A stretch of DNA of 64,000 nucleotides, from the IMG/VR virus record IMGVR_UViG_3300027749_000039, positions 62,001-126,000 of that record. One strand, given 5' to 3'. Made by a program: the position numbers and the translations under genes. This document shows, in pieces, positions 14,181 to 64,000 of the stretch (within the stretch, counting starts at the first letter, position 1; every line of letters starts with the position of its first letter). The notes below the pieces were generated by a model. That model searched no databases. It saw only the letters and a program-made list of their open reading frames with translations, and was not told where the DNA came from. The stretch is from a virus.

Positions 14181-14961
14181 TTTTTTTGTTTTTATTTTTT
14201 GTTTTCAAATAACCTTTTTCGTCTATTTTTGACTCGATAAGTTCAACATAATTAATTTTACACCTTTGCATTATCCGATAATTTTGAATTATAAATAATG
14301 CTTCCCACATTGGAGCATGATTGATTATAAATTTTCTTAGCATCCAATTATAAGCTACACGATAATCACGATTGTATAGTCTTTCAAAAGCCATTACATA
14401 TATTTCTTCTCTAGCTAAGTCTAATTTTTCATCAAACGTGAGTTTGTTAAACTTTTCCTCGCTTACATCAACATCAGCTCCGTCTTTCAATACTTTAAGA
14501 TAAAGTGGTGTTGTATTTATATATGTGTGTAAAACGTCATGATCATATGTTGTTAAGGCATTATTGAAAAAATCTTTTGATGCCATATCTAAAACAGACC
14601 TTTTATTTTCGCCATGAAAATCATTCCAGTAAGCGTATAATTCGTCAAATAAAGGACGAATTAGTTTTGCGCCATGTTCTTGTAAAAACACGATGTCATA
14701 CATATGTTTTGACCAGAAAATATCCCAGAAAATATGACTTACTTTTAAGGTATATAAAACATCAGCACTTACGCCTTGTTTAATGTTTTCTGTTATATAC
14801 TTGAATAATACAGGATTTTCGTGATATTCATAAATTGTATTATCTATGTGTTCTGTTGGTAGTTTTTTCTCAACAAGAAAATCAAAATCTTTTGGTTCTC
14901 TTGTGAAGTCTGGAAATATACTTTTTATAGCACGACTACCAATTAGAAATTTTGCGCTCAT
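14161..14961 (-). CDS. Nucleotidyltransferase-like phage protein
   Basis: A 266-residue protein whose N-terminus (GSRAIKSIFPDFTREPKDFDF) has the look of a minimal nucleotidyltransferase, with a Gly-Ser start and an Asp-Phe-Asp metal-site-like motif. The remainder is alpha-helical. Related proteins are common in large phages and poorly characterised; activity is not established. A host-type promoter lies 18 bases upstream of its ATG, so it heads the run with the two acidic paralogues. Confidence 0.6.
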   Translation of the reverse strand: MSAKFLIGSRAIKSIFPDFTREPKDFDFLVEKKLPTEHIDNTIYEYHENPVLFKYITENIKQGVSADVLYTLKVSHIFWDIFWSKHMYDIVFLQEHGAKLIRPLFDELYAYWNDFHGENKRSVLDMASKDFFNNALTTYDHDVLHTYINTTPLYLKVLKDGADVDVSEEKFNKLTFDEKLDLAREEIYVMAFERLYNRDYRVAYNWMLRKFIINHAPMWEALFIIQNYRIMQRCKINYVELIESKIDEKGYLKTKNKNKKNGKINI

Positions 14962-54138: not shown

Positions 54139-55986
54139 ATGTCAATAGTAGAAAATCTAGTTAAACAACTAACTCAATACAATGAGGCGTATCGTTCAGG
54201 TGAAGCACTTATTTCCGATACTGAATATGATTTATTAGTAGAACAGCTCGAAGAATTAGATCCAAATAATTCTTTTTTCGATAATGTTGGTATAAAAGTT
54301 GCCGATAAAGAAAGAGAAAGAAAGTTGCCTATCACAATGGCTTCCATGAATAAGATTAAATCAATGGAAGAAGTTGCTGATTGGTGCCGCTTAAAAGGTA
54401 TACCTATTGATTCATATGTAGTATTAACACCTAAATATGACGGACTTTCATTATGTGTTGATGAAACTAAAAATAATGCTACTACTCGTGGTGATGGTAA
54501 ACTTGGACAAGCATCAGATGAACACTATAAGTTAATCAAAAATCATTTGAGCAATATTAATATGCCAACAGATATTTTTGAATTTACTTACGGTGAGGTA
54601 ATGATGTCAAGAGAAACTTTTAAAACAAAGTATTCTATGAACTTCGCTAATCCAAGAAATCTTGTTGCTGGTTTAATTAATAACAAACAAGCAACCGAAT
54701 CACTTAAAGATACTGAATATATTAAATATGGTGGTGTGTGTGCGGATGGTAATAGAAATCTCTTTGCGTATAAAAATGAAATGCTAACTATGTTAAATAA
54801 CTTGCAAAAGATTCAAGTTCCATTTAAAGTAGTTAAAATATCTGAATTGAACGAAGAATTTTTAGTAAATACATTTAAAGAATGGTCAATAGATTATGAA
54901 ATTGATGGTGTAATTGTAGAAATCAATGACTTAAAATTACAAGAAAAACTTGGACGTGAGCGTTCCGGAAACCCTGTATGGGCAAGAGCATTTAAATCTC
55001 CACAATTTGAGCAATCTGCAATTACTACTGTAATAGGTATATCATGGAATATATCTAAACAAGGTTACTTAAAACCTATTCTTCACATTGACCCAGTGCG
55101 CTTAGATGGTGTTACTGTATCTAATGTAACAGGTAATAATGCACGCTTTGTTAAAGATATGGGTCTTGGTATTGGAGCTAAAATTCGTGTTGTTCGTTCT
55201 GGTATGGTTATTCCTTTAGTTAAAGAGGTAATTGAACCAGTTGAATTTGTTATGCCTGATATTGATAATATTGGTTGGAATGAAAATGAGGTTGAGTTAA
55301 TAACTTTAACTGAAACAAAAGAACAAAAATTCAAGCAATTGGTTTCTTTCTTTGAAATACTTGAAGTAGAAAATGCTGGCGAGGGTGTATTCGCCCAACT
55401 TTGGGATGCTGGATATCAAACTGTTAAGCAAGTATTAGAGCTAAAGCCTGCTAATATGGAAAAACTTGAAGGTTTTGGTAAACGCAAAGCAGAAATTGTA
55501 TATAATGCCATTCAAAGTAGAGTAAATAATGTAGAATTATCTAAACTACAACACGCAACTGGTATATTTAAAATGCTTGGTAGTAAAAAACTTGCATTAT
55601 TAGAAGGCTTTAAGACTAAACCAACACTTGGTGAAGTAATGGCTATTGAAGGATTTGCTGAAAAGTCAGCAGAATCGTATTTAACTGGTTATGATTTATT
55701 TAATGATTTTATCAAAGACCTTCCAATTACTATTTCTGAAAAGAAAGTAGTGCAAAAAGCATCTAACGAATTAGAAGGTAAGTCATTCTGCTTTACAGGT
55801 GTTCGTTGCAAAGATTTAGAACCTATTATAGAAAGCAAAGGTGGCAAAATCGCATCTGGTGTTTCTAAAAGTTTAACTTATTTAGTTGCAAAAGACCCTA
55901 CTTCAGGTAGTTCTAAGTTAGTTAAAGCAGAAGAATTAGGTGTAATATTGTTAAGCGTCCAAGATTTAGAAAATTTATTGAAATAA
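54139..55986 (+). CDS. ligA: NAD-dependent DNA ligase without zinc finger
   Basis: A 615-residue LigA. The N-terminal NAD-binding domain Ia has SDTEYDLL at about 26-33; the nucleotidyl site is KYDG at residues 99-102; RGDG, GEVMM and NPRNLVAGLIN follow; an OB fold, helix-hairpin-helix region (LEGFGKRKAEIV) and a C-terminal BRCT domain (SFCFTGVRCKDLEPII) complete it. The four-Cys zinc finger that normally joins the OB fold to the HhH region is missing: no Cys pairs are present there. It would seal nicks in phage DNA. It overlaps the phosphoesterase gene by one base. Confidence 0.93.
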   Translation: MSIVENLVKQLTQYNEAYRSGEALISDTEYDLLVEQLEELDPNNSFFDNVGIKVADKERERKLPITMASMNKIKSMEEVADWCRLKGIPIDSYVVLTPKYDGLSLCVDETKNNATTRGDGKLGQASDEHYKLIKNHLSNINMPTDIFEFTYGEVMMSRETFKTKYSMNFANPRNLVAGLINNKQATESLKDTEYIKYGGVCADGNRNLFAYKNEMLTMLNNLQKIQVPFKVVKISELNEEFLVNTFKEWSIDYEIDGVIVEINDLKLQEKLGRERSGNPVWARAFKSPQFEQSAITTVIGISWNISKQGYLKPILHIDPVRLDGVTVSNVTGNNARFVKDMGLGIGAKIRVVRSGMVIPLVKEVIEPVEFVMPDIDNIGWNENEVELITLTETKEQKFKQLVSFFEILEVENAGEGVFAQLWDAGYQTVKQVLELKPANMEKLEGFGKRKAEIVYNAIQSRVNNVELSKLQHATGIFKMLGSKKLALLEGFKTKPTLGEVMAIEGFAEKSAESYLTGYDLFNDFIKDLPITISEKKVVQKASNELEGKSFCFTGVRCKDLEPIIESKGGKIASGVSKSLTYLVAKDPTSGSSKLVKAEELGVILLSVQDLENLLK

Positions 55987-59918: not shown

Positions 59919-59960
59919 TAAAAAATCGTTAATGTTAAAAAACATTAACGATTTTTTATT
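59917..59960 (+). terminator. Intrinsic terminator, 20-bp stem
   Basis: A perfect 20-bp inverted repeat (59917-59936 with 59941-59960), loop AAAA, T-rich end, after the sigma-factor stop. Confidence 0.9.
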
Positions 59961-59975
59961 TTAAGAATTATTTTG

Positions 59976-59983
59976 TATCTTTG
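59976..59983 (+). promoter_or_regulatory. Host-type -7 element TATCTTTG
   Basis: TATCTTTG five bases before the ATG at 59989; the matching -33 position is T-rich but lacks a clear TTTG. Confidence 0.5.
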
Positions 59984-59988
59984 AGCTT

Positions 59989-60732
59989 ATGAAAAAGCTT
60001 ATATTCTTATCATTATTGGCGAATAGCGTATTCGCACAAGACACGACCACATTTAAAGGTAATGTGACATTATTGGGTAATTATTCATCTGGTAATTATA
60101 ATGCAATTACAATAGGCGGTAAATTAAATTGTATTTATAATCGCAAGCATAATTTAGCAGAATTAACTTCCGCATATAGATATACTAAAATAGATGATAA
60201 ATGCTCACCAAAAGAAGATGAAAAATATGCGTTATTTTCATATTCACATCGTGTAAATAACATAAAAATAATTGGTGTAAGCGAAAATGAGATATCCTAT
60301 GTCAGGCAAATTGATTTAAGAGCTACAATAGGTTCTGGATTTGGCTATAAATTTATAAATACTAAAAAAACAGAACTTGAAATAAGTGAAGTTTTATTAT
60401 TTGAAGATATAAAATATTATAATAAAGAATATAACATATCAACATTAAGGTATTCTACAAGAATAAAATTTACTTATACAAATTATCCATTCAATTTTTC
60501 AACTATATGGTTAGTTCAGCCGCCAATATGGCAAACACAACCTATATCTCCTATTAATAATGGATATAAAGATAATTTTAATATGAGAAGTAATACAACA
60601 ATAGATATAAATCTATCTAAAAAGATAGTTATTGGCATATCAGATGAATTTATAATGCAAACTTATGTTAAACAATTTGGTAAAAAACCTGCCGATAATT
60701 CAGTTAACTTTTATATAAAATATTCATTTTAA
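59989..60732 (+). CDS. Outer-membrane beta-barrel protein, DUF481-like
   Basis: A 247-residue protein with a signal peptide (MKKLIFLSLLANSVFA then QDTTT) and a body of alternating amphipathic strands: KGNVTLLGNYSSGNYN, AELTSAYRYTK, and a C-terminal SVNFYIKYSF ending in Phe, as outer-membrane barrels do. The pattern is of the DUF481 type. Placed in the host outer membrane it could alter phage adsorption (superinfection exclusion) or permeability. Confidence 0.75.
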   Translation: MKKLIFLSLLANSVFAQDTTTFKGNVTLLGNYSSGNYNAITIGGKLNCIYNRKHNLAELTSAYRYTKIDDKCSPKEDEKYALFSYSHRVNNIKIIGVSENEISYVRQIDLRATIGSGFGYKFINTKKTELEISEVLLFEDIKYYNKEYNISTLRYSTRIKFTYTNYPFNFSTIWLVQPPIWQTQPISPINNGYKDNFNMRSNTTIDINLSKKIVIGISDEFIMQTYVKQFGKKPADNSVNFYIKYSF

Positions 60733-61801: not shown

Positions 61802-62878
61802 ATGAACTTTTTAGACGAATTTCTCAAATTAACTGCATATACTACGCCATTTAAGCAAGAATCTGATTTAGAAGACTATCTTAATAGCAAAATCCCTGGT
61901 CTTATGAAAGACGCAATCGGTAATTATCATAAAATTATTGGTGATAGTGAAACACTTTTTACTTGCCATCTAGATAATTATTGCCGAGATAAAAGAGCTG
62001 TCACGCATGTTATAGAAGATAATATAATTTGCACTGATGGACTAACTATACTAGGAGCTGATAATAAAGCAGGTGTATTAGTTCTTATATACCTTATAAG
62101 CAATAATGTCCCTGGGCATTATTGCTTCTTTATTGGTGAAGAACCAATTGAATCTGGTGGACTTTATGGTTCTACTTTATTTGCTAAATATTATAAAGAT
62201 ATTAAAAAATTTAAAAGAGCTATTGCTTTTGATAGAAAAGCTACTGGTTCAATTATTACTAGGCAAATGGCTCAAACATGTTGTTCTAATGATTTTGCCC
62301 TTGCTCTTTGTAAAGAATTTAATGATTATGGATTATGGATGGAACCAGACGAAACTGGGTATTATACAGATACAGCTGCATTTTTAGAGCTAATACCAGA
62401 ATGCACTAATATATCTGTTGGCGTATATGACGAACATTCTACAGAAGAATCCATAGATATAGAATATCTAGAAACAATAGCCAAGACAGCCGTCCTAATA
62501 GATTGGGAATATCTACCTACACATAGAACACCAAATTCTTGGATGCCCCTCGAAAATGAGGGTGATGCTATTGTTGCACCTCATATCGAAACGGTGAATC
62601 AAACTTTATATAAAGCAGTTAAATCTATTTTATCTAATTTTAATTTCCGGTGCATGAATAAACTAGACTTTAAAAGTGGTAAAACAATGATGTTTAATAA
62701 TTGGTTTTATGATCTACCATTAACCGTAATTATTAGAAATGCTATTATTACTATAAATGGTAATAGAATACCTATACATGTTGGGCGGAATCAGTTTATT
62801 GATCCACAAGATATACAACATATAATAGAAGGTACAGTAGAAGTAGAGAATATTAACAATTTTGATTGGGATTTTTAA
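61802..62878 (+). CDS. Zinc peptidase-like hydrolase (M20/M28/M42 type)
   Basis: A 358-residue protein with the two-zinc pattern TCHLDNY (H-x-D), LGADNKAGV (bridging Asp), FIGEEPIESGG (Glu-Glu), AFDRKA and a late DEHSTEESID (His). It matches co-catalytic metallopeptidases of the M20/M28/M42 clan. The C-terminal 100 residues are an extra domain not usual in the family. It is probably an aminopeptidase or deacetylase-like enzyme. It begins the small run that ends with smpB. Confidence 0.8.
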   Translation: MNFLDEFLKLTAYTTPFKQESDLEDYLNSKIPGLMKDAIGNYHKIIGDSETLFTCHLDNYCRDKRAVTHVIEDNIICTDGLTILGADNKAGVLVLIYLISNNVPGHYCFFIGEEPIESGGLYGSTLFAKYYKDIKKFKRAIAFDRKATGSIITRQMAQTCCSNDFALALCKEFNDYGLWMEPDETGYYTDTAAFLELIPECTNISVGVYDEHSTEESIDIEYLETIAKTAVLIDWEYLPTHRTPNSWMPLENEGDAIVAPHIETVNQTLYKAVKSILSNFNFRCMNKLDFKSGKTMMFNNWFYDLPLTVIIRNAIITINGNRIPIHVGRNQFIDPQDIQHIIEGTVEVENINNFDWDF

Positions 62879-62880
62879 AA

Positions 62881-63318
62881 ATGAGTATAAATAACAAAAA
62901 AGCATATTACGAGTATTCTATATTAGAAGAATATGTAGCTGGGCTTAAATTATTAGGTTCAGAAGTTAAAGCATTGCGTGAAGGTAATGGCAATATTAAC
63001 GATACATATGTTCTTATAATGGACGATGAAGTATATGTAAGAGGCATGTATATTGCTAAACATAAAGAGTCATCTTGGATGAATCATGAAGAAGTTCGTG
63101 ATAGGAAACTGCTTTTAACTAAAAAGCAAATCAACGATTTAAAAAAAGATTTGAAAGTTAATGGTATTACCATTGTTCCTATTAGCCTATTTACTATGGG
63201 TGGTAAGTTTAAACTTAAAATAGGTGTAGCAAAGGGCAAAAAGAATTATGATAAGAAACAATCTATCAAAGAAAAGGATATTAAACGTCAAACTGATAGA
63301 GATTTAAATAATTACTAA
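62881..63318 (+). CDS. smpB: SsrA-binding protein SmpB
   Basis: A 145-residue SmpB. The ATG at 62881 (MSINNKKAYYEYSI) fits the family start. Key blocks are YVAGLKLLGSEVKALREG, NINDTYVLI, the RDRKLLLTKKQI segment and GKFKLKIGVAKGKKNYDKKQ with the basic tail that enters the ribosome. It is a partner of tmRNA in trans-translation. A phage smpB is unusual, and no tmRNA gene is visible in the window. Confidence 0.93.
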   Translation: MSINNKKAYYEYSILEEYVAGLKLLGSEVKALREGNGNINDTYVLIMDDEVYVRGMYIAKHKESSWMNHEEVRDRKLLLTKKQINDLKKDLKVNGITIVPISLFTMGGKFKLKIGVAKGKKNYDKKQSIKEKDIKRQTDRDLNNY

Positions 63319-63555
63319 ATGAAACATACAGAAAAACTAATCCCATTTGGATGGGATGACTGGGAAGAACATGATATATTACTTAATTCTTATTATAATG
63401 TTGAATTTACAGAAGATTTTGGTGAATTTAAAAAAGGTGAGAAATTTTCCTCAATTACTGTAGATTACATTAAAGGTATAATCGAAGCATTTATTGGTTC
63501 TCCTAGTGATGATTTAAAAATAAAAACAGTTGCCTTTAAAGCAACACCTATTTAA
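63319..63555 (+). CDS. Hypothetical protein, 78 aa
   Basis: A 78-residue protein starting directly after the smpB stop. It is acidic and aromatic (LIPFGWDDWEEHDILL) with no family I recognise. It is the last gene before the two structured RNA elements. Confidence 0.65.
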   Translation: MKHTEKLIPFGWDDWEEHDILLNSYYNVEFTEDFGEFKKGEKFSSITVDYIKGIIEAFIGSPSDDLKIKTVAFKATPI

Positions 63556-63558
63556 AAA

Positions 63559-63645
63559 ACGAATGTTAAACCACTTGATCATGGGATAGTAGGATTGGTA
63601 TCAATCCAAGATTAATGGCTTCTCAACCCATTTCTATCTATTCGT
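63559..63645 (+). ncRNA. Structured RNA element 1 (tandem pair)
   Basis: Outer helix ACGAAT/ATTCGT (63559-63564 with 63640-63645), second helix GATAG/CTATC (63585-63589 with 63634-63638), a hairpin GGATTG-GTAT-CAATCC (63592-63607) and a hairpin AATGG/CCATT (63614-63618 with 63628-63632). It aligns with element 2 around GAYAGTAGG and CTRTCTATT. The second helix shows compensating changes between copies. Family unknown to me. Confidence 0.6.
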
Positions 63646-63649
63646 TTAT

Positions 63650-63730
63650 AAAGCAAATATGACAGTAGGCTAAGCCAAAGTGCCGAGATAATTGGTAAGG
63701 CACACCAATTCTGTCTATTTGCTTTTTTTA
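63650..63730 (+). ncRNA. Structured RNA element 2 with pseudoknot, ending in a terminator
   Basis: Outer helix AAAGCAAAT/ATTTGCTTT (63650-63658 with 63717-63725), helix GACAG/CTGTC (63661-63665 with 63711-63715), a hairpin AATTGGT/ACCAATT (63690-63696 with 63704-63710) whose loop contains GGCAC (63699-63703), which can pair with GTGCC at 63680-63684 to form an H-type pseudoknot. The outer helix runs into TTTTTTT, so it also serves as terminator of the smpB run. Confidence 0.65.
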
Positions 63731-63731
63731 T

Positions 63732-63762
63732 TTTGTAAAGTCAAATATTTTTCGTATCTTTG
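63732..63762 (+). promoter_or_regulatory. Host-type (Bacteroidetes) promoter for LeuRS
   Basis: TTTG (63732-63735), 19 bases, TATCTTTG (63755-63762), 14 bases to the ATG at 63777. Confidence 0.85.
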
Positions 63763-63776
63763 TAAAAATTACAAAA

Positions 63777-64000
63777 ATGAACAAATATATTACAGTCATG
63801 TTTCCTTATCCGTCTGGTGACGGGTTGCACATAGGACATGTATATAATTACGCAATAATGGACTCATATTGTCGCTATATGCGATATATGGGCAACGAAG
63901 TATATCAGCCTTTTGGGTTTGATGCCTTTGGTTTGCCTGCAGAAAATTATGCTAAAAAAGTAGGTAGAGATCCAAAAGATGTCACTTATGAAAACATAGA
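63777..64000 (+). CDS. leuS: Leucyl-tRNA synthetase (start only; runs off the window)
   Basis: The first 74 codons of a class I synthetase: MNKYITVMFPYPSGDGLHIGH with the HIGH motif, then VYQPFGFDAFGLPAENYA, which is characteristic of LeuRS. The frame is open to the right edge. It would charge host or phage tRNA-Leu. It stands alone behind its own host-type promoter, after the terminator of the smpB run. Confidence 0.92.
   Translation, partial: MNKYITVMFPYPSGDGLHIGHVYNYAIMDSYCRYMRYMGNEVYQPFGFDAFGLPAENYAKKVGRDPKDVTYENI

What the first reader, a model, noticed from the sequence alone, without database searches (positions are those of the whole stretch)
63559..63730. Two tandem copies of an undescribed structured RNA with a pseudoknot, between smpB and leuS
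The two elements align at GAYAGTAGG and CTRTCTATT. Helix GATAG/CTATC in copy 1 becomes GACAG/CTGTC in copy 2, a compensatory change that supports the pairing. Copy 2 can form an H-type pseudoknot between GTGCC and the GGCAC loop of the AATTGGT hairpin. They close the smpB transcript or form separate RNAs. The nearness to smpB, which binds structured RNA, is suggestive. I could not match them to a known riboswitch, ribozyme or tmRNA.
Basis: partly seen in the sequence, partly recalled or inferred. Interest (0 to 1): 0.72.

Follow-up and report, generated by a model that had tools for sequence, protein, structure and literature searches.

The report
Duplicated RNA hairpin ending the smpB operon
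Downstream of a phage ribosome-rescue gene lie two related folded-RNA segments, one of which very probably works as the stop signal for transcription; no relative was found in any collection searched, so the finding is real but modest.

Summary
The two elements are real. Their cores (62 and 63 nt) align with a single 1-nt gap, better than 4,991 of 5,000 shuffled pairs, and both can form a three-way junction inside an outer stem. The "compensatory change" exists, but with only two sequences it proves little. The pseudoknot is found only in copy 2 and leaves no linker to cross its first stem, so it is unlikely as drawn. Neither copy prefers the shared fold thermodynamically.

Rfam, ARAGORN, pattern scans of IMG/VR and GTDB species genomes, phage and plasmid BLAST, and a covariance model run over the 190-kb genome and 20 related phage records found no third copy. 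It is not tmRNA; three related phages do carry real tmRNAs, and these do not match.

The best reading is a duplicated 3'-UTR module of the smpB operon. Copy 2 is an intrinsic terminator with a folded domain in its loop, placed directly before the leuS promoter. Two close relatives have a plain terminator followed by a promoter between smpB and leuS. The SmpB-partner idea is not excluded but has no support.

A larger discovery lies just outside the window: the phage's tRNA operons carry leader peptides whose codons match the tRNAs that follow, conserved in related phages.

The parts
61802..62878 (+). Peptidase-like gene, first gene of the presumed smpB operon; a TTG-N-TAnnTTTG promoter motif lies at about 61757
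   Evidence: PHROG 4191 peptidase, E 5e-53; promoter motif G000 123757
62881..63318 (+). smpB
   Evidence: Pfam PF01668, E 1.4e-49
63319..63555 (+). 78-aa ORF between smpB and the elements, with no detectable relative
   Evidence: no hit in Pfam, PHROGs, IMG/VR or phage tblastn
63557..63647 (+). Element copy 1: outer stem AAACGAAT (63557-63564)/ATTCGTTT (63640-63647); P1 GATAG (63585-63589)/CTATC (63634-63638); P2 hairpin GGATTGGTATCAATCC (63592-63607); P3 AATGG (63614-63618)/CCATT (63628-63632); extra 20-nt 5' segment 63565-63584
   Evidence: sequence; alignment A1/A2; RNAalifold; P2 and P3 probabilities 0.98 and 0.78-0.96, P1 0.08
63650..63729 (+). Element copy 2 with terminator: outer stem AAAGCAAATA (63650-63659)/TATTTGCTTT (63716-63725); P1 GACAG (63661-63665)/CTGTC (63711-63715); P2 GGCTAAGCC (63668-63676); P3 AATTGGT (63690-63696)/ACCAATT (63704-63710); T7 tract 63723-63729
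   Evidence: sequence; z = -4.3; outer stem and P1 probabilities about 1 apart from the last outer pairs
63680..63703 (+). Proposed pseudoknot strands GTGCC (63680-63684) and GGCAC (63699-63703); present in copy 2 only, with 0 nt between GGCAC and the 3' strand of P3
   Evidence: sequence; the loop letters differ in copy 1
63733..63762 (+). Bacteroidota-type promoter of leuS: TTG (63733-63735), 19 nt, TATCTTTG (63755-63762)
   Evidence: motif scan
63777..64000 (+). leuS, start of gene; continues past the window
   Evidence: Pfam tRNA-synt_1g and tRNA-synt_1; 39 phage relatives

Best explanation
The pair is a locally duplicated, structured 3'-end module of the smpB operon. Copy 2 acts as an intrinsic (Rho-independent) terminator: a 15-bp A/T-rich stem with one bulge, closed over a separately folding inner domain instead of a short loop, and followed by seven T. 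It insulates the smpB transcript from the leuS promoter directly downstream. Copy 1 is a diverged duplicate just upstream, without a T tract; it would add a second hairpin that slows 3'-to-5' decay or helps termination. Shown: the sequences, the shared junction, the T tract, the promoter directly downstream, and terminators followed by promoters between smpB and leuS in relatives. Inferred: that transcription stops at copy 2, that copy 1 stabilises the RNA end, and that duplication was the origin.
For: Copy 2's outer stem plus P1 form with probability near 1 and run straight into TTTTTTT. Copy 2's z-score (-4.1) falls in the range of other intergenic hairpins of this phage, many of them plain terminators; it ranks 28th. 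The leuS promoter's TTG box begins 3 nt after the T run. In G004 (L042) smpB is followed at once by TTAGCAAATTGCTAA-T8 and then a promoter. In G001 (L043) TCAGCAATATTGCTGA-T7 and a promoter lie just before the short ORF that precedes leuS. Duplication: 38 of 62 letters shared, one 1-nt gap, 9 of 5,000 shuffles as good.
Against: The loop of copy 2 is far longer than in textbook terminators, and the terminator scan does not list it because its loop limit is 8 nt. Copy 1 has no T tract, so termination does not explain why it is there. The G+C of the module (38-43% in 60-nt steps over the cores; genome 28%) is higher than a plain terminator needs. No transcript data exist.
Confidence: 0.55

Rival explanations
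1. An undescribed small structured RNA, processed from the 3' end of the smpB operon or transcribed separately, that works in trans. The two copies are paralogous RNA domains.
For: G+C well above the genome average; the same three-way junction is found unaided in both copies; no Rfam family fits.
Against: No promoter motif directly upstream; no homolog in any collection searched; the shared fold is not the minimum-energy fold of either copy.
Confidence: 0.2
2. A decaying insertion without RNA function: the orphan 78-aa ORF and the two hairpins arrived together between smpB and the leuS promoter, and the hairpins are DNA-level inverted repeats or relics.
For: The whole 63319-63727 stretch is absent from the closest relatives at this place; ORF78 has no relatives.
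Against: The T tract and promoter directly after copy 2 make a transcriptional role likely; the inner helices are kept in both copies despite about 39% differing positions.
Confidence: 0.18
3. A decoy or partner RNA for the phage SmpB, replacing or modulating tmRNA.
For: The module lies one short ORF downstream of smpB; this phage record has smpB but no detectable tmRNA. A phage tmRNA reduced to little more than its tRNA-like domain is known in mycobacteriophage DS6A, and a similar molecule inhibits tmRNA (PMC4131195).
Against: No T-arm, acceptor or CCA features, and no tmRNA match even at E up to 5. Real phage tmRNAs in G007, G012 and G014 do not match the model. The closest smpB-bearing relatives lack it. 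The genome is a fragment, so a tmRNA could lie elsewhere.
Confidence: 0.05
4. A translation-coupled switch: a small ORF starting at 63563 (MLNHLIMG, then TAG TAG, then open to a TAA at 63671) lets ribosomes that read through both amber codons unwind copy 1 and the 5' arm of the copy 2 terminator.
For: The ATG lies 7 nt after the stop of ORF78; the frame has no TAA or TGA for 36 codons; the phage carries an amber-suppressor tRNA and probably a second next to it.
Against: An open frame of this length is likely by chance in this composition; long ORFs give no sign that TAG is read as sense; leuS has its own promoter downstream.
Confidence: 0.02

Closest known systems
Rho-independent (intrinsic) terminator
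   Same: Stable stem followed directly by a T tract, placed between one operon's end and the next operon's promoter
   Different: Loop of about 45 nt that folds into its own domain; a diverged copy without a T tract sits just upstream
tmRNA (Rfam RF00023) with SmpB
   Same: Lies near smpB; contains more than one structured segment
   Different: No tRNA-like domain, no tag frame, no Rfam match; true phage tmRNAs found in three relatives are unrelated
Type III toxin-antitoxin RNA repeats (ToxI-like; from general knowledge)
   Same: Tandem structured repeats followed by a terminator
   Different: The next gene is leuS, not a ToxN-like endonuclease; the pseudoknot is not shared by the copies

Membership tests
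Intrinsic terminator | Stable stem followed immediately by a run of T/U | tested here: met
   Outer stem plus P1 probabilities near 1, then T7
Intrinsic terminator | Short loop (3-8 nt) | tested here: not met
   About 45 nt enclosed by P1; not listed by the terminator scan. Structured insertions in terminator loops are tolerated in principle (general knowledge), so this is claimed as 'works like a terminator', not as a textbook member
Intrinsic terminator | Transcripts end at the T tract | not testable with these tools
   No RNA data
tmRNA (RF00023) | Match to the covariance model | tested here: not met
   No match in the window and none at E up to 5 in 63300-63800; elsewhere in G000 only tRNA-like fragments below the cut-off
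tmRNA (RF00023) | tRNA-like acceptor plus T-arm | tested here: not met
   T-arm plus acceptor scan gives nothing at 63557-63730; ARAGORN finds nothing in the window
tRNA (RF00005) | Cloverleaf match | tested here: not met
H-type pseudoknot RNA | Crossing helices shared by both copies with feasible loops | tested here: not met
   GTGCC/GGCAC only in copy 2; 0 nt between 63703 and 63704
Ribosome-mediated attenuator | Own promoter, leader ORF rich in the relevant codons, terminator, then the controlled gene | tested here: not met
   The leuS promoter lies downstream of the terminator; the only nearby short frame is not Leu-rich
Type III toxin-antitoxin | ToxN-like endonuclease gene directly downstream | tested here: not met
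   The downstream gene is leuS
Any of 4,227 Rfam 15 families | Score above the gathering cut-off | tested here: not met
   nothing below E = 1 locally

The most novel reading that the evidence does not exclude
The two copies are domains of a new phage small RNA, made from the 3' end of the smpB operon, that binds the phage SmpB or the ribosome and changes ribosome rescue during infection.
Probability: 0.07. Interest if true: 0.65.

Novelty: new variant of a known kind. Interest (0 to 1): 0.25.

Why it matters
If the reading is right, it shows a phage terminator that has acquired and duplicated a folded domain, which is a small point. If the RNA were instead a stable product acting with SmpB, it would be a new way for a phage to adjust ribosome rescue. 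The same genome holds a more important pattern outside the window: tRNA operons preceded by leader peptides written in the codons those tRNAs read.

Tried and rejected
- Rfam at gathering cut-offs on the window and at relaxed E-value on the locus: nothing.
- Degenerate-pattern scans of IMG/VR and GTDB species genomes: no match shows both the stems and the junction.
- Covariance model R1, built from only two sequences and therefore weak at long range: only the two known copies in G000. In 20 related phage records the best hit has E = 0.8, and in further loci E = 0.26 or worse. These are treated as chance.
- blastn against phage and plasmid records: no match.
- tmRNA hypothesis: tested by ARAGORN, Rfam and a custom acceptor plus T-arm scan, and rejected.
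- TAG recoding: TAG ends only 8 of 180 long ORFs, but the long ORFs opened by reading TAG as sense look like neighbouring genes or non-coding tails, so the 36-codon frame over copy 1 was not taken as a gene.
- Using ORF78 to find relatives of the cassette: no relatives.
- Two scripts failed or were cut short by a coordinate slip; copy 2's energies come from the corrected run.

Full report
What the place is. The window is bases 62001-126000 of a 190,602-base virus record with 27.9% G+C and 46 tRNA genes found by ARAGORN. Promoter motifs of the Bacteroidota type (TTG-N17-23-TAnnTTTG) are frequent. At the right edge of the window a peptidase-like gene (61802-62878), smpB (62881-63318) and an orphan 78-aa ORF (63319-63555) form what looks like one operon. 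The two elements follow, then the promoter of leuS (TTG 63733, TATCTTTG 63755) and leuS itself (63777 on).

Checking the observation. Aligning the cores gives 38 identical letters of 62, with a single 1-nt gap. Only 9 of 5,000 pairs of dinucleotide-shuffled sequences score as well, so common descent is likely but not overwhelming. RNAalifold, given the two sequences, returns a three-way junction by itself: P1 GAYAG/CTRTC, P2 GG/CC and P3 AWTGG/CCAWT, with two double changes.

Limits of the structural claim. Two sequences cannot carry a covariation argument: 121 of 500 shuffles do as well. In the nearest-neighbour ensemble copy 1 forms its outer stem, P2 and P3, but P1 only 8% of the time. Copy 2 forms its outer stem and P1 almost always but P3 only 1% of the time, the three-way junction being 2.7-3.5 kcal/mol above its best fold. 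The H-type pseudoknot in copy 2 would need zero nucleotides to cross a 5-bp stem and has no counterpart in copy 1, where the loop reads CTTCTCAAC. A shorter 3-bp version is possible but untested.

Relatives. leuS has 39 relatives in IMG/VR and smpB six. The two records closest in both genes, G004 and G001, lack the element. In G004 smpB is followed directly by a plain terminator and a promoter; in G001 a plain terminator and a promoter lie just before the short ORF preceding leuS. A covariance model of the two copies finds nothing else in the 190-kb record, in 20 related phage records including a 635-kb phage, or in further loci. Pattern scans of IMG/VR and GTDB genomes and blastn against phages and plasmids also fail. 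Conservation is therefore untested rather than disproved.

Is it tmRNA? SmpB's partner was the obvious candidate. Ten of 17 related records have smpB, and three (G007, G012, G014) have a tmRNA above Rfam's cut-off; ARAGORN reads a tag in G007's. Huge phages with tmRNA and SmpB are known (PMC7162821). The window's elements have no T-arm, acceptor or tag, no Rfam match, and no similarity to those tmRNAs.

Best explanation. Copy 2 has the anatomy and position of an intrinsic terminator with a folded insertion in its loop; copy 1 is a diverged duplicate that lacks the T tract. Termination is inferred, not shown. The role of copy 1 is the weakest part of the account.

Side finding, outside the window. 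Seven tRNA operons of this phage are preceded by a short leader ORF and a terminator hairpin, and the leader's codons match the tRNAs that follow. Examples: MKHFSSHKHSFKFWF... before His/Trp/Phe/Lys tRNAs; MKTISSSSRSSLTLEIQR before Ser/Arg/Ser tRNAs...AYEAGYAYEG... before Tyr/Glu/Gly/Ala tRNAs; MKNINRNNNTINLVINNVNTLCVIRG... before Leu/Ile/Arg/Val/Asn/Thr/Cys tRNAs; MKNINLNMNLLNLMETL... before Leu/Met tRNAs...PQQPQVDVDQDPD... before Asp tRNAs; MKNLTLQQQQQMIKLD before three Gln tRNAs. Similar leaders occur in G001, G004, G007 and LR745206. Reassigning leaders to operons at random within each genome never reaches the observed match (0 of 200,000; this phage alone, 1 of 5,040, the true order itself). 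Three relatives also have a Leu-rich leader (for example MKQNAKSLLLLLL) and a terminator before leuS. This looks like ribosome-mediated attenuation of phage tRNA operons. The paper searches made here found no description of it, but the library is incomplete. Caveats: the leaders were first noticed by eye, the later script used loose rules, and the permutation test reuses leaders chosen by inspection and counts homologous leaders from several phages as separate cases.

Noticed in passing
Right of the window: G000 129632-129721 (L052:4133-4222), 133410-133466 (L052:7911-7967), 142662-142760 (L052:17163-17261), 157809-157910 (L053:12809-12910), about 161035-161103 (L053:16035-16103), 171086-171181 (L054:6086-6181), 172519-172569 (L054:7519-7569): Leader ORFs whose codons match the tRNAs of the operon that follows, each with a terminator hairpin before the first tRNA; similar leaders in related phage records G001, G004, G007 and LR745206. 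Looks like ribosome-mediated attenuation of phage tRNA operons; 0 of 200,000 random reassignments match as well.
   Followed up: partly
L004, L010 and L002, just upstream of leuS: Leu-rich leader ORFs (MKQNAKSLLLLLL, MNTNLLLLADS, MINNNVNILLLPLT) followed by a terminator hairpin before the phage leuS gene; absent upstream of leuS in this window.
   Followed up: partly
G000 54412-54485 and 54492-54572 (L050:14412-14485, 14492-14572): An amber-suppressor tRNA (anticodon CTA) and, directly after it, a second tRNA-like gene that also seems to carry CTA; TAG ends only 8 of 180 long ORFs.
   Followed up: partly
G007 59955-60348 (L199), G012 223297-223699 (L198), G014 205630-205983 (L200): tmRNA genes above the Rfam cut-off in three large related phage records, in G007 with tag AKSKTTATQVEELEIA; smpB is present in G007 and G012 but far from the tmRNA, and was not found in G014.
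   Followed up: partly
G000 129863-129980 (L052:4364-4481): A 118-nt element with a tRNA-type acceptor (GAAAAGG/CCTTTTC) and T-arm but a long A/T-rich interior; ARAGORN does not call it.
   Followed up: no
window 63563-63673: A 36-codon frame with two adjacent in-frame TAG codons overlaps copy 1 and the start of copy 2, starting 7 nt after the 78-aa ORF.
   Followed up: partly
G000 133744-133833 (L052:8245-8334): A tRNA with an apparent four-base anticodon (ctga) within the Ser/Arg tRNA operon.
   Followed up: no
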